Assembly: GCA_002699025.1 (NCBI GenBank)
Contig: PABA01000221.1
Coordinates: 1-56,147 of the forward strand
DNA: 56,147 nucleotides
Direction: 5' to 3'
Source of the DNA: Sandaracinus sp.
GTDB taxonomy: Bacteria > Myxococcota_A > Polyangia > Polyangiales > Houyiibacteriaceae
Shown: positions 45,775 through 56,147 of the stretch, piece by piece
Layout: each line of letters starts with the position of its first letter
Numbering within the stretch: the first letter of the stretch is position 1
Translations under genes and position numbers: made by a program
Notes under the pieces: model-generated
What the model was told of the DNA's origin: nothing
Seen by the model: only the letters and a program-made list of their open reading frames with translations
Databases searched by the model: none

Positions 45775-46815
45775 ATGCTGTCCGTCGATATGGGGGATGC
45801 GCCCACGGATCGCGCCACGGAGGCGTTTCGTCGACTGCTCTCGGACGCCGCGGCAGGCGGCCAGGCCAAGGTCGACGCCCTCGTCGCCCTCTCGCAGCGG
45901 ACGCTCTTCGTGGCGACCTGGACGCCGGGGAGCGACGACTTCCGCACGCTCGTGAACAGCAGCGGCCAGCAGGCGCTCCCGGTCTTCTCCTCGAAGGCGG
46001 AGCTGGACGAGGCGGCCGGGCGCTTCGGCTGGGCGGGCCCGGACGGCTCGGTGCCCCACCTCGAGGTCGGCGCCCGGAAGGTCTTTCGCCGCCTGGTCGA
46101 GAGCGACCTCGGCTTCCTCATCATCGACATCGCCTCGGACCACTCGCTCGAGTGCGAGCGCGCCGAGATCGAGCCGCTCATGGGCGGGCGCGGGCGCTCG
46201 GACTCGTCGGGGCCCTATGCGGCGGTCGGGCGCATCAGCGAGACGATGCTTCAGGCGGTCAAGCCCGCGAGCGGCGCCGCCCAGCCGCCGGGGTCGCTGC
46301 CGGAGGGCGCGCTGCCCCAGGACGCCCCCACGGCGCCGGGCACGCAGGCCGCTCCCCAGACGCCGCCCGCCGCGCCCCCTCAGGCGCCGCCGCCTCCCGC
46401 GCCCGCCGCGAAGCCGCCGGGCCTGACCGTGAGCCACGACGCCCCCGCGGCCGGCGGCGCCTCGGCGACCTTTGGCAGCGGCGCGGGGAGCGTCTCGCTC
46501 CACCCGCTCGCCGAGGAGCCGAGCGACGAGCTGCTCGACGCGCTCTCGGACGTGCTCCGCGGCTACCCCGAGGTCGAGTGGGCCGCCTTCGCCCTCGCCG
46601 CGCGCGGGCCGACGGAGCCGGTGCCGACGGTGGGCCTCCGCGTGGACACGGCCTACCGGGCGCGGGTCAACGAGATCATCGCGCAGCTGAAGCAGACGGG
46701 CGACGCGCAGGGGGCGAGCCTCGACGTGCTCCTCCTCGACGACCCCTCGCTCGTGCGCGCCGCGCGGAGCGACGCGCTGGTCTTCTTCCCCTGGCGCCGC
46801 CGATCGGTCACCTAA
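45775..46815 (+). CDS. SseB-family protein
   Basis: The protein has 346 aa. ATG 45775 is chosen because a GGGGGG lies just upstream; ATG 45790 is possible. The N-terminal domain (~25-125) has the SseB pattern (LVALSQRTLFVATWTPGSDD, NSSGQQALPVFSSKAELDEAA). A Pro/Ala/Gln-rich linker (~155-230) follows. The C-terminal domain (~245-346) includes LLDALSDVLRGYPEVEWAAF and ALVFFPWRR, like the SseB C-terminal part. Predicted cytoplasmic; role unclear (enhanced serine sensitivity family). It is convergent with the next gene. Confidence 0.88.
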   Translation: MLSVDMGDAPTDRATEAFRRLLSDAAAGGQAKVDALVALSQRTLFVATWTPGSDDFRTLVNSSGQQALPVFSSKAELDEAAGRFGWAGPDGSVPHLEVGARKVFRRLVESDLGFLIIDIASDHSLECERAEIEPLMGGRGRSDSSGPYAAVGRISETMLQAVKPASGAAQPPGSLPEGALPQDAPTAPGTQAAPQTPPAAPPQAPPPPAPAAKPPGLTVSHDAPAAGGASATFGSGAGSVSLHPLAEEPSDELLDALSDVLRGYPEVEWAAFALAARGPTEPVPTVGLRVDTAYRARVNEIIAQLKQTGDAQGASLDVLLLDDPSLVRAARSDALVFFPWRRRSVT

Positions 46816-46893: not shown

Positions 46894-48006
46894 TCAGCGG
46901 CTGCGGACGTCCACGCCGCCCGGGACGCTGCCGCCCGTGAGCCACTGCTCCATGGCGGTCTCGCCGGCGAGGTGGCGGCGGAAGAAGGCGACGCCGATGG
47001 TCGAGGTGATGGCCTGCACGGCCGACGCCTCGACGCTCCCGTTCGGGCACGCGCTGCACGCGAAACCGCAACCGGTCGTATCGTAGACGAAGTCCATGTG
47101 GTCGGCGCCGAGGACGTCCCACTCGGCCGCCCAGGAGGCCATGGTCGTGCCCTCGTAGAACTGCTGGAAGTTCTGGTCCATGGGCGCGCAGGGCATGAAG
47201 CCACCGCTGCCGTTGGTGGTCTCGCCGATGAAGCCCACGGCCGCGGTGATGCCGTTGCTCTGCGAGGGGACGATGTCGGGCGTGGCCGCCGGGTCGCCGC
47301 CGAGGGGGCCGCCGCCTCCGTCGACCGGGTCGATGCCGAAGACCGCGCCGACGCGCGAGTCGGCGGCCGCCACCATCGTGCTGAGCTTGCCGCCGAGGCT
47401 GTGGCCGGTGACGCCGATCTGCGTCGCGTCCACCGAGCCCGCGACGGGGCCGCTCGTCGTCGCCCAGTCGATCACGGCGATCAGGTCGTCGCGCATCTCG
47501 ACGTGGTTGGTGCCGCCGAGGAGGCCGCCCTGGTCCGGGTCGGCGCGCACGACGACGAAGCCGTGGCTCGCGAGGCGCTCGGCCAGGGGCAGGTAGTTGG
47601 TGCTCTCGAGCTGGAAGCCCGGGACGAGCACGATCAGCGGGAAGGTGCCGTCGCCCGTCGGCACGTGCGCCACCACCGGCGTCGTGCGGCTGGCGCGGCT
47701 GACGCTGCCGTCGGTCGTCGTGACGCTGAAGGGGCCGGCCGCGCTCGGATCGCCCTCGACCGGCGGCGTCCCGGCGTCCTCGCCGGGCGTGCCCGAGTCC
47801 ACGCCCGGCACACCCGAGTCGACGCCCGGCACGCCCGAGTCGACGCCCGGCACGCCCGAGTCCACGCCCGGCACGCCCGAGTCCACGCCCGGCACGCCCG
47901 AGTCCACGCCCGGGCCGCCAGCGTCCACGCCCGGGGCCACGCCGTCGTCGTCACCGCAGCCGCCGAGGGCGACCACCAGGAGGAGGGAGAGGGAGAAGCG
48001 ACGCAT
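46894..48006 (-). CDS. Lipoprotein alpha/beta-hydrolase, chlorophyllase/PETase-like
   Basis: The protein has 370 aa from ATG 48006, with GGAAAGG upstream. The lipobox is ALGGC (Cys17), then GDDDG and a stalk of repeated VPGVDSG units encoded by a 21 bp tandem repeat (~47780-47915). The hydrolase fold follows: LIVLVPGF (oxyanion loop), GHSLGG with Ser203, FGIDPVDGGGG as in chlorophyllase-like enzymes, and GADHMDFVYD with the probable catalytic His. A Cys-rich GCGFACSAC segment follows. Fold class is clear; substrate not. A surface esterase is inferred. Confidence 0.88.
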   Translation of the reverse strand: MRRFSLSLLLVVALGGCGDDDGVAPGVDAGGPGVDSGVPGVDSGVPGVDSGVPGVDSGVPGVDSGVPGVDSGTPGEDAGTPPVEGDPSAAGPFSVTTTDGSVSRASRTTPVVAHVPTGDGTFPLIVLVPGFQLESTNYLPLAERLASHGFVVVRADPDQGGLLGGTNHVEMRDDLIAVIDWATTSGPVAGSVDATQIGVTGHSLGGKLSTMVAAADSRVGAVFGIDPVDGGGGPLGGDPAATPDIVPSQSNGITAAVGFIGETTNGSGGFMPCAPMDQNFQQFYEGTTMASWAAEWDVLGADHMDFVYDTTGCGFACSACPNGSVEASAVQAITSTIGVAFFRRHLAGETAMEQWLTGGSVPGGVDVRSR

Positions 48007-48231: not shown

Positions 48232-49617
48232 TCAGTCGTGCTGGAAGAGCAGCACGACGTTCTGCTCGTAGCCCGAGACCAGGATCTCGGCCCGCCCGTC
48301 CCCGTCGAGGTCGGCCACCTTCATGCCGCCGGCCTGCGGCAGGTTCGGCTGCAGCACGTGCGTCTCGAAGGCCCCGTCGATCTGCTCGAGCCAGTACACG
48401 TCCGGGTCGCCGTCCCCGCTCACGACGAAGTCCGTGTCCCCGTCGCCGTCGATGTCGCCCTCGCCGAAGATCCCCGGCGCCGCGTTCCGCTCCACGCCCT
48501 CGTTCTCCTTCGCGACGATCCCCTCGGAGAAGACGGTCCGCGCCCAGCTCTCCTCGCGCGCGTCCTCGCCGTCGGGGATCCGGTAGCCGAAGATGGCCGA
48601 GTCGATGCCCTCCTCGTGGACGTTCACGTGGTTGCTCCCGACGGCCCAGCGATCGCCCGCCTCGAAGAGCCCCTCGACGACGAACATCTCGATGGACGGC
48701 CCGGGCTCGGTGTCGATGACGTGCCGCGTCCACTCGCCGTCGCTCTCGGCCGTCGGCGCGCTCACCTGCTCGATCCACACGAAGCTCGCCGTCCCCGTGA
48801 AGAACTCGGCCGTGACGATGTCGAGGTCGCCGTCCTCGTCCACGTCGTAGGGCTCGGGGACGCTCCCGCCGGCGTCGGCCAAGATCGTCCGCGGCGTGGT
48901 CTCGAAGCGCTCGGGCGTGTCGGCGCCGCGGAACCAGACCGTGCGCGCTCCGCCCTCGCCCATCGGGCTGAAGAGCTCGGCGACGGTGAGCAGGTCGAGG
49001 CGCCCGTCCCCGTCGAGGTCCTCGAGCAGGCCGAGGTGATAGAACTCGTCGTTGCCGGCCTCGATCAGCGTGTGGCGCACCCACTCGCCGCCCTCGTTCT
49101 CGAACCAGGCGAGCCCGCCGCAGGGGCGACGGAAGAGGTTGCAGATGAGGAAGCCGTGCGGGACCAGCACGTCGAGGTCGCCGTCCTCGTCGACGTCCTC
49201 GAAGGTCACGTCGTTGGGCCACTGGAGCGCGTCCTCCGGTCGCACGACGGCCTCGCGGGTCCAGTCCTCGATGGAGTCGCCCTGCCGGTAGATCACGACC
49301 TCGCCGTTGGGGAGGCGCGTCGGGTTCTCGAGGAGCCCGAAGTGGCCGTAGACGATGTCCAGGTCGCCGTCCCCGTCGAGGTCGGCGAGGTCGCCGAAGG
49401 CCGGGCCGAGGGCGGCGTCGTCGATGACGTGGCGGGTGAAGCCATCCGCGGGATCCTCGAGCTCGAGGGGCGGGAGGCCGCCGGCGTCCTCGGGCATGGG
49501 CGAGGCCGCGTCGACGCCGGGGGAGCCCGCGTCCGGCGTGGGCGTGGCTCCGTCGTCGTCGCCGCAGGCGAAGACGGCGAGGGAGAGGAGGCAGGCGAAG
49601 AAGGAGCGGATGCGCAT
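48232..49617 (-). CDS. FG-GAP/VCBS-repeat lipoprotein
   Basis: The protein has 461 aa with ATG 49617 and GGAGA upstream. The lipobox is AVFAC (Cys18), then GDDDG and a short stalk. Calcium-loop repeats DxDGDGDxD recur: DLDGDGDLDIVYG, VDEDGDLDVLVPHG, DLDGDGRLDLL, VDEDGDLDIVTAEF, DIDGDGDTDFVVSG, DLDGDGRAEILVSG. This is the beta-propeller of FG-GAP/VCBS proteins, here likely seven blades. It binds calcium and displays a surface, perhaps for adhesion. It lies 226 bases from the hydrolase gene start. Confidence 0.93.
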   Translation of the reverse strand: MRIRSFFACLLSLAVFACGDDDGATPTPDAGSPGVDAASPMPEDAGGLPPLELEDPADGFTRHVIDDAALGPAFGDLADLDGDGDLDIVYGHFGLLENPTRLPNGEVVIYRQGDSIEDWTREAVVRPEDALQWPNDVTFEDVDEDGDLDVLVPHGFLICNLFRRPCGGLAWFENEGGEWVRHTLIEAGNDEFYHLGLLEDLDGDGRLDLLTVAELFSPMGEGGARTVWFRGADTPERFETTPRTILADAGGSVPEPYDVDEDGDLDIVTAEFFTGTASFVWIEQVSAPTAESDGEWTRHVIDTEPGPSIEMFVVEGLFEAGDRWAVGSNHVNVHEEGIDSAIFGYRIPDGEDAREESWARTVFSEGIVAKENEGVERNAAPGIFGEGDIDGDGDTDFVVSGDGDPDVYWLEQIDGAFETHVLQPNLPQAGGMKVADLDGDGRAEILVSGYEQNVVLLFQHD

Positions 49618-49780: not shown

Positions 49781-50203
49781 TCAGGGGACCGGCAGGGTCA
49801 CCGTGATCTCGAGGTCCGTGTCGACGACCTCGATCGGGCCCGTGACGCCGGTCGAGTCCTCGGGCCCCGGGATGGTCGGGCTCGGCGGATCGAAGTCGAG
49901 GACGCCGAGGACCCAGTAGGTGCCCGGCGGCACGTCGAGGAGCGACGCCGTGGCGGGGAAGGTGGGCGCGTCGAGGCGCTCGAGGGCGACCGGCGGCGTC
50001 ATGGGGCTCTCCTCGGTGAAGGCCCCGACGAGCACGCGCCCGTCGAAGCTCGTCGCCTCGGACTCGACGGTCACGGTGACGGTCGGGTCGGCGCCCGCGT
50101 CCATGGGCGCGCCGGCGTCGCTGGGCCCGGCGTCCGCCATCCCGCCGTCGTCGTCACCGCAGCCCAGCGCGAGCACGGCGAGGAGCGCCCAGGCGCGGCT
50201 CAC
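49781..50203 (-). CDS. Small CGDDDG lipoprotein
   Basis: The protein has 140 aa from GTG 50203, which overlaps the upstream stop by four bases (GTGA). Lipobox LALGC (Cys15), then GDDDG and a short DAG stalk. The mature domain (VTVTVESEATSFDGRVLVGAF ... LLDVPPGTYWVLGVLDFD ... LEITVTLPVP) is a small beta-sandwich as in carboxypeptidase-regulatory or B-type prealbumin-like folds. Probably a surface or periplasmic lipoprotein coupled to its neighbour. Function unknown. Confidence 0.82.
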   Translation of the reverse strand: MSRAWALLAVLALGCGDDDGGMADAGPSDAGAPMDAGADPTVTVTVESEATSFDGRVLVGAFTEESPMTPPVALERLDAPTFPATASLLDVPPGTYWVLGVLDFDPPSPTIPGPEDSTGVTGPIEVVDTDLEITVTLPVP

Positions 50204-50856
50204 GGAGCCTCACTGTGCGGCGAGGGGCAGCTGCCCGTCGTCGTGCACATGCCGAAGTAGAGGTCGCCCGGGCCGGTCGGGCCGGTGAAGGCGGCGCAGG
50301 TGCGGCACTCGGCGCCGGGGTCGCAGTCCGAGTCGACCTGGCAGAGCTCGGCGACGTTCGAGCCGGAGCAGGCGCCCGCCTGGCAGACCGCGCCGGACAT
50401 GCTCACGCAGCAGTTCTCGCCGGCGCCGCAGTCCTCGGGCCCGTCGCAGGTGCCGGCCGAGGAGAAGGCCCCGCCGCAGCCGCTCTCGGAGGCGCACATC
50501 TGACCCGAGAGGCTCGTGCAGCAGACCTGCGGCGCCATGCAGGAGGTGCCGTCGCAGCCGACGTAGCCGGGGCGCTCGTCGGAGACGAGGCGCGGGTCCC
50601 GCATGTCCGTGGAGCCGCTGCCGGCGTCCTCCCCGGGGCTCGTCGTCCCGGCGTCCACGCCCGGCGTCGGCGTGCCCGAGTCCACGCCCGGCGTCGTCGG
50701 CGTGCCCGAGTCCACCCCCGGCGTCGGCGTCGTGCCCGAGTCCACGCCCGGCGTCGGCGTCGTGCCCGAGTCCACGCCGCCGCCGCGGCCGTCGTCGTCG
50801 CCGCAGGCGAGCGCGAGACAGAGGAGGAGCGAGAGGAGGGGAAGCAAGCGGGTCAT
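50200..50856 (-). CDS. Cys-rich CGDDDG lipoprotein
   Basis: The protein has 218 aa with an ATG start. Lipobox LALAC (Cys18), then GDDDG and a stalk of TPGVDSGT units encoded by repeats of ~24-27 bp (50660-50780). The rest holds about fifteen cysteines in CCTSLSGQMC, ENCCVSMSGAVC and DSDCDPGAECRTC patterns like small disulfide-rich domains of myxobacterial surface proteins. It is first in a two-gene operon with the small lipoprotein. Function unknown. Confidence 0.85.
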   Translation of the reverse strand: MTRLLPLLSLLLCLALACGDDDGRGGGVDSGTTPTPGVDSGTTPTPGVDSGTPTTPGVDSGTPTPGVDAGTTSPGEDAGSGSTDMRDPRLVSDERPGYVGCDGTSCMAPQVCCTSLSGQMCASESGCGGAFSSAGTCDGPEDCGAGENCCVSMSGAVCQAGACSGSNVAELCQVDSDCDPGAECRTCAAFTGPTGPGDLYFGMCTTTGSCPSPHSEAP

Positions 50857-52264: not shown

Positions 52265-53572
52265 GTGCCCGCTCCGCCCCTCGGCGCCTCCCCGCCGCAC
52301 CTCGTCCAGCCTCCGCCCGGGCCGCGCTCCCGCGCGCTCGTGGATCGGCTCGCCCGGAGCGAGTGCCCCGCCTTCACGGCCCGCCGCGCCCGCCGCGCCG
52401 AGGCCTCCGGGGCGTCGCAGGACCCGATCGTCTGGGCCGAGGCGCGCGGCGCCAACGTGGTCGACGCCGACGGAAACGTCTTCGTCGACCTGACGAGCGG
52501 CTTCGGCGTGCAGGCCGTCGGCCACGCCCACCCGCGCGTGGTGGAGGCGGTGCGGCGCCAGGCCGGCAGGCTGCTCCACGGGCTCGGCGACCTCCACCCT
52601 TCGGACGTGAAGATCGCGCTCCTGGATCGGCTCGCCGAGCTCGCCCCCTGGGACGAGGCGCGCGTGGTCCTCTCGCTGAACGGCGCGGACGCGGTGGAGA
52701 CGGCGCTGAAGACGGCGGTGCTCGCGACCGGCCGCTCCGGCGTGCTCGCCTTCGAGGGCGGCTACCACGGCCTCGCCCACGGGCCGCTCGCCGCCTGCGG
52801 CTACGCGCCGGGCTTCCGGCGCCCCTTCGCGGCGCAGCTCAACCCGCACGTGCGCTTCGCCGCCTGGCACGAAGCGGAGCTCGGCGACGCCCTCGCTGCC
52901 GTCGACGCGGCCTGGGGCGACGACGTCGGGGCCGTGCTCGTCGAGCCCCTCCAGGGGCGCGGGGGGATCCGCCCGGCGCCGCCCGGCTTCCTCGCGGCGC
53001 TGGCCGAGCGCTGCCGCGCGCGGGGGGCGCTCCTGGTCGTCGACGAGATCCTCACCGGGCTCGGCCGCTGCGGCGCGCGCTGGCTGAGCGTGGCGCAGGG
53101 CGCGGAGCCGGACCTGCTCTGCGCGGGCAAGGCGCTCGGCGGCGGGCTTCCGGTGAGCGCCTGTCTCGGCCGGGCCGACGTGATGGCCGCCTGGGGCGCG
53201 CCGGACGGCGAGGCCATCCACACGGGCACCTTCTACGGGCACCCGCTCGGCGCGGCGGCGGCGCTGGCGGCGCTCGACGTGCTCGAGGAGGAGGCGCTCG
53301 CGGCGCGCGCCCAGGAGCTCGGCGAGCGCTTCGCCGGGGCGCTCCACGAGGCCACCGGCCGGCCCGTCACCGGCGCGGGCCTGATGCTCGGCGTGCGCTA
53401 CGAGGGGTCGACCCTGCCGCTCGTCGCGCGCCTCCTCGCGCGCGGCTACCTGACGCTCCCGGCCGGCGCGGGCGCCACGACGCTCCAGCTCGCGCCCCCG
53501 CTGACCATCGACGAGGCCCTCCTCGACGGCTTCGTCGCGACCCTCGCGGAGCTCGGCGATGGCGCCGGCTGA
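52265..53572 (+). CDS. Class III PLP-dependent aminotransferase
   Basis: The protein has 435 aa from GTG 52265. PLP features: NGADAVETALK (phosphate region, ~139-149), EGGYHGL, Asp260 in VVDEILTGLGR, and the Schiff-base Lys289 in AGKALGGGLP. HTGTFYGHPLGAAAALAAL follows. Class III enzymes (ornithine, GABA, omega-amine type) transfer amino groups to aldehydes or from omega-amines. The next two genes make a fatty-acid reductase, so I infer an aldehyde as the acceptor, giving an amine. Gene ends overlap luxE by 14 bases. Confidence 0.92.
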   Translation: MPAPPLGASPPHLVQPPPGPRSRALVDRLARSECPAFTARRARRAEASGASQDPIVWAEARGANVVDADGNVFVDLTSGFGVQAVGHAHPRVVEAVRRQAGRLLHGLGDLHPSDVKIALLDRLAELAPWDEARVVLSLNGADAVETALKTAVLATGRSGVLAFEGGYHGLAHGPLAACGYAPGFRRPFAAQLNPHVRFAAWHEAELGDALAAVDAAWGDDVGAVLVEPLQGRGGIRPAPPGFLAALAERCRARGALLVVDEILTGLGRCGARWLSVAQGAEPDLLCAGKALGGGLPVSACLGRADVMAAWGAPDGEAIHTGTFYGHPLGAAAALAALDVLEEEALAARAQELGERFAGALHEATGRPVTGAGLMLGVRYEGSTLPLVARLLARGYLTLPAGAGATTLQLAPPLTIDEALLDGFVATLAELGDGAG

Positions 53573-54653
53573 GGCCCCCCTCGAGGAGGCCCGGGCCGCG
53601 CTCCGGGACCGCGCCCTCGCGCTCGTCGCCCGCCTCGGAGACGGCGCCCGCGACGACGCCGCGCGCGACGCGCTCCTCGCCGACCTCGCCGCCTTCCAGG
53701 CGCGCCACGTCGCCCCCTACGGCAACCTCGTGCGCGCTCGCGGGGCCGGCGCGGCGCTGCCCACGGACGTCTTCCGCCACGCGCGCGTCGCGGCGCATCC
53801 GCCGAGCGCCGACCTGCGCGTCTTCCGCACCAGCGGCACCACCCACGGCGCCCGCGGCGCCCACGCCTTCCGCGACCTCGCCCTCTACGACGCCGCCGCC
53901 CGCGCCTGGGCGAAGCACATGCTCTTCCCCGACGTGGAGCGCCTCGACCTCGTCGTCCTCGCGCCGCACGAGGACGAGACGCCGGACTCGTCGCTCGGCT
54001 ACATGCTCGCGCGCTTCGCCGAGTGGTTCGGCCGCCGCACGCGCTGGGTCTGGCGCGAGGGCGGGCTCGACCTCGACGCGCTCCGCGAGGCCACCCGGAA
54101 CGCCACCGGCCCGGTCGCGCTCCTCGGGACGAGCTTCGCCTTCGTGCACGCCGACGACGGCCTCGGGGACGCGCGCGTCGAGCTCCCCGCCGGGAGCCGG
54201 GTGATGCAGACCGGCGGCTTCAAGGGGCGCTCGCGCGAGCTCGAGCCGGCCGCCATGCGGGCCATGCTCACCCGGCGCTGGGGCGTCCCCGAGAGCCACG
54301 TCGTCGCCGAGTACGGCATGACCGAGCTGAGCTCGCAGGCCTACGAGACCCCGCTCCGTGACGCCGCGCTCGGGCGCCCGATCGGCGCGCGCCGCCTGCT
54401 CTTCCCCGGCTGGGTGCGCGCCACCCCCGTCGACCCGGCCACGCTCGCGCCCACGGCGGGCGAGGGCATCCTGCGCATCGACGACGCCGCGAACCTCGAC
54501 TCCGTGGCCGCGCTCCAGACCGCCGACCGGAGCCGGCGCGTCGAGGTGGACGGCGACGCGGGCTTCGTCGTGCTCGGCCGCGCGCCCGGGGCCGTGCCGC
54601 GCGGCTGCTCGCTCGCCGTCGAGGAGGCCCTCGCCCGGAGCGGCGCGCGATGA
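53559..54653 (+). CDS. LuxE-like acyl-protein synthetase
   Basis: The protein has 364 aa. The AMP-forming loop is FRTSGTTHGARG (~89-100), and EYGMTELSSQAYE is the usual A-domain-like motif (~251-263). The C-terminal conserved cysteine Cys350 in PRGCSLAVEEAL matches the acyl-accepting Cys near the C terminus of LuxE. LuxE activates a fatty acid with ATP and passes it via its own Cys to the reductase. This gene overlaps the aminotransferase and is followed by a LuxC-like gene, so a reductase complex is expected. No luciferase genes are present. Confidence 0.92.
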   Translation: MAPAEAPLEEARAALRDRALALVARLGDGARDDAARDALLADLAAFQARHVAPYGNLVRARGAGAALPTDVFRHARVAAHPPSADLRVFRTSGTTHGARGAHAFRDLALYDAAARAWAKHMLFPDVERLDLVVLAPHEDETPDSSLGYMLARFAEWFGRRTRWVWREGGLDLDALREATRNATGPVALLGTSFAFVHADDGLGDARVELPAGSRVMQTGGFKGRSRELEPAAMRAMLTRRWGVPESHVVAEYGMTELSSQAYETPLRDAALGRPIGARRLLFPGWVRATPVDPATLAPTAGEGILRIDDAANLDSVAALQTADRSRRVEVDGDAGFVVLGRAPGAVPRGCSLAVEEALARSGAR

Positions 54654-54841
54654 GCCGCCTCCGCGAAGCCCGACCGAGCCGCTCGCCGGGGAGAAGCGCC
54701 GCGCCGCCGCGCGCGCGCGGCGGGCGCCGGGAGCGCGGAACGATGAGCGCCTACCGCGACGCCCGGCCGAGCCGCTCGCCGGGGAGAAGCGTGACCGCCG
54801 CGCCGCCGCGCGCGGCGGGCGCCGGGAGCGCGGAACGATGA
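54650..54841 (+). CDS. Arg-rich small ORF, ATGA-coupled to both luxE-like and luxC-like genes
   Basis: The ORF has 63 aa. Its ATG overlaps the luxE-like stop (ATGA at 54650) and its stop overlaps the luxC-like start (ATGA at 54838). The DNA consists of two copies (offset 93-95 bp) of a segment that includes a ribosome site and MSAYRDA start, so it arose by duplication of the luxC 5' end. The product is mostly Arg/Ser/Pro/Ala without a fold signal. It may be a coupling ORF rather than a protein with a job. Confidence 0.35.
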   Translation: MSRLREARPSRSPGRSAAPPRARGGRRERGTMSAYRDARPSRSPGRSVTAAPPRAAGAGSAER

Positions 54842-54858
54842 GCGCCTACCGTGACGCC
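54670..54858. repeat. Imperfect ~95 bp tandem duplication before luxC-like gene
   Basis: Copy 1 (54670-54763) and copy 2 (54763-54858) share GAGCCGCTCGCCGGGGAGAA and GGGAGCGCGGAACGATGAGC. The offset is 93 at the left and 95 at the right, so one copy has a small indel. Copy 1 contains an out-of-frame duplicate of the luxC start (ATG 54743). Confidence 0.85.
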
Positions 54859-56040
54859 CCGGCCGAGGCCATCGACGCGCTCGCGCGGCGGCTCCGGGAC
54901 CGCGCGCCCGTCGAGCTCGACGCCGACTGGGCCTCGGACAAGCTCGCCGACGCCGCGCAGCGCCTGGTCGGCGACGAGCCGCTGGTCCAGGCCATCGCCG
55001 AGCGCGCCGCGCTGGCCCCGGAGCTGGTGCGCTGGGGCATCGCGACGACCGCCGAGGGCGTGCGGCGGGACGCGCTCCGGCGACTCCGGGAGGACGCCGG
55101 CCTCGGCGAGCGGGCCCGCCCCAACCGCGCGCGCCTGGCCGTGGTCGCGCTCGCCGGCAACGTCTTCAGCGCCTGCGTGCGCCCCATCCTCCTCGCGCTC
55201 CTCCACGAGCTGCCCGTGCTCGTCCGCGCCTCCTCGCGCGACGACGTCCTCGCCCGCGCCCTCGTCGCGCGCCTGCCCGCGCCTTTCGACGAGGCCGCCG
55301 CCGTCGTCGGCTTCCCGCGCGACGACGCGGCCGCCTGGGCCGCGCTCCTCCGCCACGCCGACGTGGTCCACGCCTACGGGGGCGACGCCGCCCTGCGCGC
55401 CATGCGCGACGCGACGCCCCTCCAGGCGCGCTTCGTCCCCCACGGCCACGGCCTCGGCGTCGCCGCGCTCCGGGGCGAGCCCGACGAGGTCGACGCCGGA
55501 GCCCTTGAGGCCCTCGCCGAGGACGTCGCCGCCTACGACCAGCGCGGCTGCCTCTCCCCGCAGCTGCTCCTCTGCCGCGCCCCCGCGCGCCTCGCCCCGC
55601 GCCTCCTCGAGGCGCTCGACGCGCTCGGCCGCCGCTGGCCCCTCGGGCCCCGCTCCTCCGCCCAGGACGCCGCGACCAGCCAGTGGCGCGGCACCGCCGC
55701 CGCGCTCGGCACGCTCCTCGAAGGCGAGCACGCTGCCCTGGCGATCGAGACCGGGACCCCGCTCCCGCTGCCGCCCGGCCGCCGCCAGCTCGTCGTGCGC
55801 TCCTGCCCCGACGAGGCCGCCCTCACCCCGGCGCTCGCCGCCTTCGGCCCGACGCTCAAGGCCCTCGGCGCCCACGATCCCCGCCGCCCGACGGCCGCCG
55901 TCCCCCACGCCCTCGCCACCCTCCCCGCCGGCGTCGCCCCGCGCGTGAGCGAGTGGGGCCAGATGCAGCGCCCGCCGATCGAGGCGTGGCTCGACGGCTT
56001 CCCCCCGAGCGAGGGGCTGCTCTGGCGGGCGGGGGAGTAG
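54838..56040 (+). CDS. LuxC-like acyl (acyl-protein/CoA) reductase
   Basis: The protein has 400 aa from ATG 54838 with GGGAG upstream. LuxC features: the ALAGNVFSACVRPILLAL nucleotide region (~104-121), ALLRHADVVHAYGG (~169-182), and catalytic Cys238 in AAYDQRGCLSPQLLL, the aldehyde-dehydrogenase-like Cys that holds the acyl group. The enzyme reduces the acyl thioester made by LuxE to a fatty aldehyde with NADPH. It is the last gene of the operon; after 56041 only repeats are seen. Confidence 0.93.
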   Translation: MSAYRDAPAEAIDALARRLRDRAPVELDADWASDKLADAAQRLVGDEPLVQAIAERAALAPELVRWGIATTAEGVRRDALRRLREDAGLGERARPNRARLAVVALAGNVFSACVRPILLALLHELPVLVRASSRDDVLARALVARLPAPFDEAAAVVGFPRDDAAAWAALLRHADVVHAYGGDAALRAMRDATPLQARFVPHGHGLGVAALRGEPDEVDAGALEALAEDVAAYDQRGCLSPQLLLCRAPARLAPRLLEALDALGRRWPLGPRSSAQDAATSQWRGTAAALGTLLEGEHAALAIETGTPLPLPPGRRQLVVRSCPDEAALTPALAAFGPTLKALGAHDPRRPTAAVPHALATLPAGVAPRVSEWGQMQRPPIEAWLDGFPPSEGLLWRAGE

Positions 56041-56081
56041 GCGGAACGCGGGCGGAGCGCCGGGCGGAGACGAGCGGGAGC

Positions 56082-56147
56082 CACAGCACGAGCCGGAGCC
56101 ACAGCGCGAGCCGGAGCCACAGCGCGAGCCGGAGCCACAGCGCGAGC
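56082..56147. repeat. 18 bp tandem repeat running off the window
   Basis: GAGCCGGAGCCACAGCGC units repeat about 3.5 times to the end of the window, with GAGCCACAGCACGAGCC as the first variant. No gene is visible. Confidence 0.85.

What the first reader, a model, noticed from the sequence alone, without database searches (positions are those of the whole stretch)
52265..56040. Aminotransferase-LuxE-LuxC operon: a predicted acid-to-amine pathway
Three overlapping or coupled genes encode acid activation and acyl transfer (LuxE-like, Cys350), reduction to aldehyde (LuxC-like, Cys238) and a class III aminotransferase (Lys289). In order, this would turn a carboxylic acid into an aldehyde and then a primary amine without luciferase. 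I know LuxC/LuxE from bioluminescence, but a fixed link to an aminotransferase suggests fatty-amine or omega-amine making, possibly for a lipid or secondary metabolite. Gene order puts the aminotransferase first.
Basis: partly seen in the sequence, partly recalled or inferred. Interest (0 to 1): 0.75.

Follow-up and report, generated by a model that had tools for sequence, protein, structure and literature searches.

The report
Core acid-to-amine enzyme trio
Three neighbouring genes, an aminotransferase and two relatives of the enzymes that feed bacterial light production, form a trio found in about three quarters of sampled genomes of the phylum Myxococcota; gene fusions and shared presence or absence indicate that they turn a still unknown carboxylic acid into an aldehyde and then an amine.

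Summary
Window 52265-56040 encodes a class III aminotransferase, a LuxE-like ligase and a LuxC-like reductase with the stated catalytic residues. The operon is not a local curiosity. In 284 Myxococcota genomes, LuxE was found in 226, LuxC in 226 and the aminotransferase in 220; 212 have all three and 49 have none. In Verrucomicrobiota the aminotransferase occurs only in genomes with LuxE, although the genes are unlinked. Natural fusions occur: LuxE-LuxC, and LuxC joined to a different class III aminotransferase. That second type was found in LuxE-bearing Bacteroidota, Binatota and Sumerlaeota that lack the first. The window's aminotransferase belongs to one sharply bounded clade in which the usual carboxylate-binding arginines are lost and the gate glutamate is replaced by an invariant arginine. 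Best reading: acid to acyl-enzyme to aldehyde to primary amine. The substrate, and whether it is fatty, is not shown; the breadth argues against a clade-specific secondary metabolite. Gene order differs between phyla, so 'aminotransferase first' carries no mechanistic meaning. The chemical logic is known from TamH/PigE; this LuxE-LuxC version, as a widespread core pathway, was not found described in the library searched.

The parts
52265..53572 (+). class III aminotransferase of the 'QGR' clade; PLP lysine Lys289 at 53129-53131, gate residue Arg232 at 52958-52960, Gln408 at 53486-53488
   Evidence: Pfam PF00202 278 bits; Lys289 invariant; AlphaFold model pLDDT 90.3, best PDB matches GABA transaminases; diagnostic residues and clade support
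53559..54653 (+). LuxE-like acyl-protein synthetase (adenylate-forming, PaaK-like fold); acyl-carrying Cys350 at 54606-54608
   Evidence: family profile against 7xc6_E LuxE 8.4e-38; 27 of 29 relatives hit PF04443; AlphaFold model pLDDT 91.5 matches PaaK-type ligases; Cys350 invariant
54648..54867 (+). 95-bp tandem duplication (2.3 copies) of the luxE-stop/luxC-start region; relict luxC start codons at 54650 and 54743, both out of frame with luxC
   Evidence: Tandem Repeats Finder, repeat search, sequence
54838..56040 (+). LuxC-like acyl-enzyme/acyl-CoA reductase; catalytic Cys238 at 55549-55551
   Evidence: Pfam PF05893 87 bits over its cut-off; 7xc6_A 4.3e-7 alone, 1.4e-32 by profile; Cys238 invariant

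Best explanation
The three genes encode one short pathway. The LuxE-like enzyme uses ATP to adenylate a carboxylic acid and takes the acyl group onto Cys350. LuxC accepts it on Cys238 and reduces it with NAD(P)H to the aldehyde. The PLP-dependent aminotransferase, perhaps taking the aldehyde by contact or channelling, converts it to a primary amine with an amino acid as donor. Shown here: gene identity, catalytic residues, operon conservation, co-occurrence, fusions and the altered aminotransferase site. Inferred: the reactions themselves, the direction, the donor and the channelling. The acid and the final product are unknown. Its conservation points to a house-keeping or envelope role, not a clade-specific secondary metabolite.
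For: Adjacent AT-LuxE-LuxC in nearly all order-level loci, with other neighbours changing, and in most loci of other Myxococcota families; typical 4-bp overlaps. Myxococcota, n=284: LuxE 226, LuxC 226, AT 220, all three 212, none 49; AT together with LuxE 218, odds ratio 763 (genomes are not independent). Verrucomicrobiota, n=115: LuxE 7, AT 5, all 5 inside the 7, and the genes far apart (p 1.4e-7). The clade aminotransferase is also present but unlinked in two Gemmatimonadota and one Holophagales genome with LuxE-LuxC. Fusions: LuxC with a class III aminotransferase in one 866-aa ORF (L139) and LuxE with LuxC in L120. LuxE-LuxC-AT order in L128, L132, L163 and, with another aminotransferase type, L143. 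In the AT clade the residues equivalent to GABA transaminase Arg141, Glu211 and Arg398 are Leu (rarely M/V/T), Arg and a non-arginine throughout the high-scoring rows, the clade having 100/100 support: no site for a second carboxylate, as expected for a plain aldehyde. The analogous class III aminotransferases TamH and PigE act on aldehydes made by their own reductase domain (PMC9594044, PMC8341465).
Against: No biochemistry; chain length and donor unknown. Loss of the usual donor-binding arginine could mean an unusual donor or another reaction such as an aminomutase. Ten genomes with LuxE (8 Myxococcota, 2 Verrucomicrobiota) show neither aminotransferase type at the thresholds used; some are incomplete genomes. 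In Bacteroidota the link to a second aminotransferase rests on fusion and linkage seen in other phyla. The L139 and L120 fusions are on metagenome-assembled or draft contigs.
Confidence: 0.77

Rival explanations
1. LuxE-LuxC make an aldehyde (or, with another reductase, an alcohol) for ether lipids or waxes, and the aminotransferase only shares regulation or supplies a precursor upstream.
For: LuxE and LuxC are linked more tightly to each other than to the aminotransferase in Gemmatimonadota, Verrucomicrobiota and one Myxococcota family (f27); ten LuxE genomes lack both aminotransferase types.
Against: The aminotransferase follows LuxE presence and absence even when unlinked, and LuxC is fused to an aminotransferase in L139.
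Confidence: 0.12
2. A variant of the best explanation: the substrate is an amino acid or other polar acid and the aminotransferase acts like glutamate-1-semialdehyde aminomutase or makes a diamine: amino acid to amino aldehyde to an isomer or diamine.
For: Loss of the Arg398-equivalent, which to my knowledge aminomutases also lack; an invariant aspartate (Asp109) at a position that lines the substrate pocket in related enzymes (pocket position from own knowledge).
Against: Known LuxE/LuxC act on fatty acids; the gate arginine Arg232 offers a donor carboxylate site, so an ordinary amino-acid donor remains possible; similarity is to GABA, ornithine and putrescine transaminases.
Confidence: 0.2
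3. The operon runs in the catabolic direction: an amine is deaminated to an aldehyde and then oxidised to an acid.
For: Transaminases are reversible and LuxC belongs to the aldehyde dehydrogenase superfamily.
Against: An ATP-consuming LuxE-like ligase with an invariant acyl-carrying cysteine is not needed for catabolism; no transporter or regulator is conserved beside it.
Confidence: 0.05

Closest known systems
Tambjamine TamA-TamH and prodigiosin PigE (acid or thioester to aldehyde to amine)
   Same: Acyl activation, reduction to aldehyde and class III transamination to an amine; reductase and aminotransferase naturally coupled (PMC9594044, PMC8341465).
   Different: Their reductase is of the acyl-ACP reductase type and works with carrier-protein or CoA thioesters in secondary-metabolite clusters; here the ligase and reductase are LuxE and LuxC relatives, unfused in most genomes, in a core operon without a metabolite cluster.
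Bioluminescence fatty acid reductase LuxC-LuxE (luxCDABE; structure 7xc6)
   Same: LuxE and LuxC families, catalytic cysteines, and expected acid-to-aldehyde chemistry.
   Different: No luciferase or luxD neighbour is conserved; the aldehyde is predicted to go to an aminotransferase; LuxE keeps the ordinary ligase motif EYGMTEL, which is altered in 7xc6_E.
GABA, putrescine, ornithine and acetylornithine transaminases
   Same: Same fold and catalytic lysine; 26-39% identity in the top structural matches.
   Different: Separate clade with the carboxylate-binding arginines lost and the gate glutamate turned into arginine.
LuxE/LuxC genes in Aeromonas flagellar glycosylation islands and the LuxE homologue AS87_03730 of Riemerella
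   Same: Non-luminous bacteria carrying luxE (and in Aeromonas luxC) homologues (PMC7874193, PMC4772473).
   Different: Those reports concern glycan islands or a virulence phenotype; no aminotransferase partner or acid-to-amine pathway was proposed in the passages read.

Membership tests
LuxE acyl-protein synthetase (PF04443) | profile match | tested here: met
   Window protein alone scores no Pfam family, but 27 of 29 family members do, and the family profile matches 7xc6_E at 8.4e-38
LuxE acyl-protein synthetase (PF04443) | acyl-accepting cysteine near the C terminus | tested here: met
   Cys350 in RGCSL, invariant in 29 members, aligned with GCSL of 7xc6_E
LuxE acyl-protein synthetase (PF04443) | activates fatty acids | not testable with these tools
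   needs an assay
LuxC acyl-CoA reductase (PF05893) | profile match over the curated cut-off | tested here: met
   87 bits against 21
LuxC acyl-CoA reductase (PF05893) | catalytic cysteine | tested here: met
   Cys238 invariant in 24 members
lux bioluminescence operon | luxA/luxB luciferase genes beside luxC and luxE | tested here: not met
   no luciferase family is conserved beside the trio in 41 loci; the only recurrent neighbours are syntenic ones of other kinds
Class III aminotransferase (PF00202) | profile match and PLP lysine | tested here: met
   278 bits; Lys289 invariant
GABA/ornithine-type omega-amino-acid transaminase | arginines binding the substrate and donor carboxylates (Arg141, Arg398) and gate Glu211 | tested here: not met
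   Leu170, Gln408 and Arg232 in the window; same pattern throughout the clade
TamH/PigE-type bifunctional enzymes | acyl-ACP-reductase-type domain fused to the aminotransferase | tested here: not met
   the reductase here is LuxC and is a separate gene in the window

The most novel reading that the evidence does not exclude
An undescribed core pathway of primary metabolism or envelope synthesis makes an amine from a carboxylic acid in most Myxococcota and in scattered Gemmatimonadota, Verrucomicrobiota, Acidobacteriota, Omnitrophota and Eremiobacterota, and, with an aminotransferase from a second clade, in Bacteroidota; its amine product is a new cell constituent.
Probability: 0.4. Interest if true: 0.85.

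Novelty: new variant of a known kind. Interest (0 to 1): 0.64.

Why it matters
A single-copy trio kept by about three quarters of a phylum, and re-found with its parts scattered in other phyla, must do something steady and useful, yet I found no description of it in the library searched. The fusion in L139 also gives a first functional lead for a class III aminotransferase found in all five Bacteroidota genomes examined. It makes a clear, cheap question testable: which acid, which amine, and where in the cell does the amine go?

Tried and rejected
Secondary-metabolite cluster: rejected, because no pathway genes are conserved around the trio. Chance grouping: rejected by conservation. Operon extension downstream: cannot be seen in the window (the contig ends), but in many order-level relatives a convergent gene follows LuxC. 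Functional clues from neighbours of the unlinked aminotransferases (glycogen synthase, enoyl-ACP reductase, repair and sigma-factor genes) gave nothing consistent. Literature searches for LuxE/LuxC with an aminotransferase found no description of this trio. A search for the gate-residue literature of GABA transaminase found nothing usable, so residue roles rest on own knowledge.

Full report
Observation. The window (a whole 56,147-base contig of a 9.24-Mb, 96% complete genome) ends with three + strand genes: a class III aminotransferase (52265-53572), a LuxE-like protein (53559-54653) and a LuxC-like protein (54838-56040). Family scans confirm the aminotransferase and LuxC directly. LuxE is too diverged for a single-sequence hit (E 0.066 to 7xc6_E), but the family profile finds the solved LuxE at 8.4e-38 and 27 of 29 relatives match PF04443. 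Its predicted structure (pLDDT 91.5) is that of a PaaK-type adenylate-forming ligase.

Conservation. A LuxE homologue is present in 54 of 58 relatives and 226 of 284 Myxococcota genomes. In the fetched order-level loci the order AT-LuxE-LuxC is kept while everything outside changes; 26 of 40 AT-LuxE junctions are 4-bp overlaps. Most loci from other families of the phylum keep the order too. Counting each gene in the same 284 genomes gives LuxE 226, LuxC 226, aminotransferase 220, all three 212, none 49. All 16 genomes listed from other orders of the same class lack LuxE and the aminotransferase; one of them, G255, has a LuxC. LuxE and aminotransferase agree in 274 of 284 (218 both, 56 neither). 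The Fisher p-value (7e-48) ignores shared ancestry and should not be read literally.

Other phyla. A scan of named genomes found LuxE in Gemmatimonadota, Verrucomicrobiota, Holophagales, Omnitrophota, Sumerlaeota, Eremiobacterota, Bdellovibrionota (Oligoflexales), Binatota and Bacteroidota. Gemmatimonadota, Verrucomicrobiota and Holophagales have LuxE-LuxC in one place and the same aminotransferase elsewhere in the genome. In 115 Verrucomicrobiota only 7 have LuxE; 5 of these 7 and none of the other 108 have the aminotransferase. This patchy, unlinked co-occurrence is the strongest single argument that the aminotransferase belongs to the pathway.

Fusions. In L139 one 866-aa ORF carries LuxC (residues 41-422) and a class III aminotransferase (489-863), directly after LuxE. 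In L120 one 745-aa ORF carries LuxE and LuxC. So each pair of successive steps is found fused somewhere.

Two aminotransferases. The window's aminotransferase belongs to a clade with 100/100 support. Against GABA, putrescine and acetylornithine transaminases, the clade has Leu where they have the Arg/Lys that binds the distal carboxylate, Arg in place of the gate Glu (EPIQGRGG for EPIQGEGG) and Gln/Ser/Thr or similar in place of the donor-binding Arg. Every row scoring 462 bits or more shows the Arg gate; no full-length row scoring 339 or less does. My reading (residue roles from own knowledge of GABA transaminase) is that the donor arginine has moved across the pocket and that the acceptor has no second carboxylate. 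The aminotransferases of L139 and of the Binatota operon L143 are of a second type with the motifs AQTSxxP and HVMVYGE; they group with class III aminotransferases of five Bacteroidota genomes and one from Sumerlaeota. In 60 genomes tested, this type scores 600 bits or more only in those Bacteroidota, Binatota and Sumerlaeota, none of which has the first type, and 352 bits or less elsewhere. The positive genomes supplied the profile, so only the negatives are an independent test. In Bacteroidota the three genes lie apart, and a diverged LuxC sits beside a ferredoxin gene.

Mechanism. LuxE adenylates an acid and carries it on Cys350; LuxC takes it on Cys238 and reduces it; the aminotransferase makes the amine. 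This is inference from families with known chemistry. TamH accepts C7-C14 aldehydes with L-Glu and is fused to its reductase (PMC9594044), and PigE reduces a thioester and transaminates the aldehyde (PMC8341465), so the logic has precedent. The substrate is open: nothing here shows that it is fatty.

Novelty. Same chemical logic as TamH/PigE, different enzymes for activation and reduction, a distinct aminotransferase clade, and a core rather than secondary setting. I found no paper describing the trio, within a library that lacks most subscription journals. I therefore call it a new variant of a known kind.

Limits. G044, a single 10,327,335-base contig carrying the trio, matches the length I remember for Sandaracinus amylolyticus, which I could not verify. 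Bit-score thresholds were chosen by the gap in scores. No coordinates of the structural models were available for measuring distances, so the placement of Arg232 rests on ungapped sequence alignment.

Noticed in passing
window 54648-54867; L033 10541-10835: The luxE-stop/luxC-start junction is expanded by tandem repeats in the window (95-bp unit, about 2.3 copies) and in its closest relative (47-bp unit, several copies), each unit holding a copy of the luxC start; other relatives have a plain 4-bp overlap. Possibly independent expansions affecting LuxC translation.
   Followed up: partly
window 56071-56147: The contig ends inside an 18-bp tandem repeat (4.3 copies), probably why the assembly stopped.
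   Followed up: no
window 45775-46815: An SseB-like gene lies directly upstream of the aminotransferase in many relatives; in the window it is separated from it by five minus-strand genes (two alpha/beta hydrolases, an FG-GAP protein and two small lipoproteins).
   Followed up: partly
window 46894-48006, 48232-49617, 49781-50203, 50200-50856, also 10956, 14946, 24130: Many predicted lipoproteins share the start ...CGDDDG after the lipobox and low-complexity linkers such as PGVDSG.
   Followed up: no
L226 17479-19831: In a Sumerlaeota genome LuxE overlaps what looks like a class I (aspartate-type) aminotransferase gene, a further association of LuxE with an aminotransferase.
   Followed up: no
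L248 9403-12513 and L249 7418-10410: In two Flavobacteriia the type-2 aminotransferase sits directly beside an OstA-like (lipopolysaccharide-transport type, by eye) gene, a hint of an envelope role.
   Followed up: no
L222, L223, L224: The diverged LuxC of Bacteroidota is divergently paired with a 116-aa ferredoxin gene in all three genomes looked at.
   Followed up: partly
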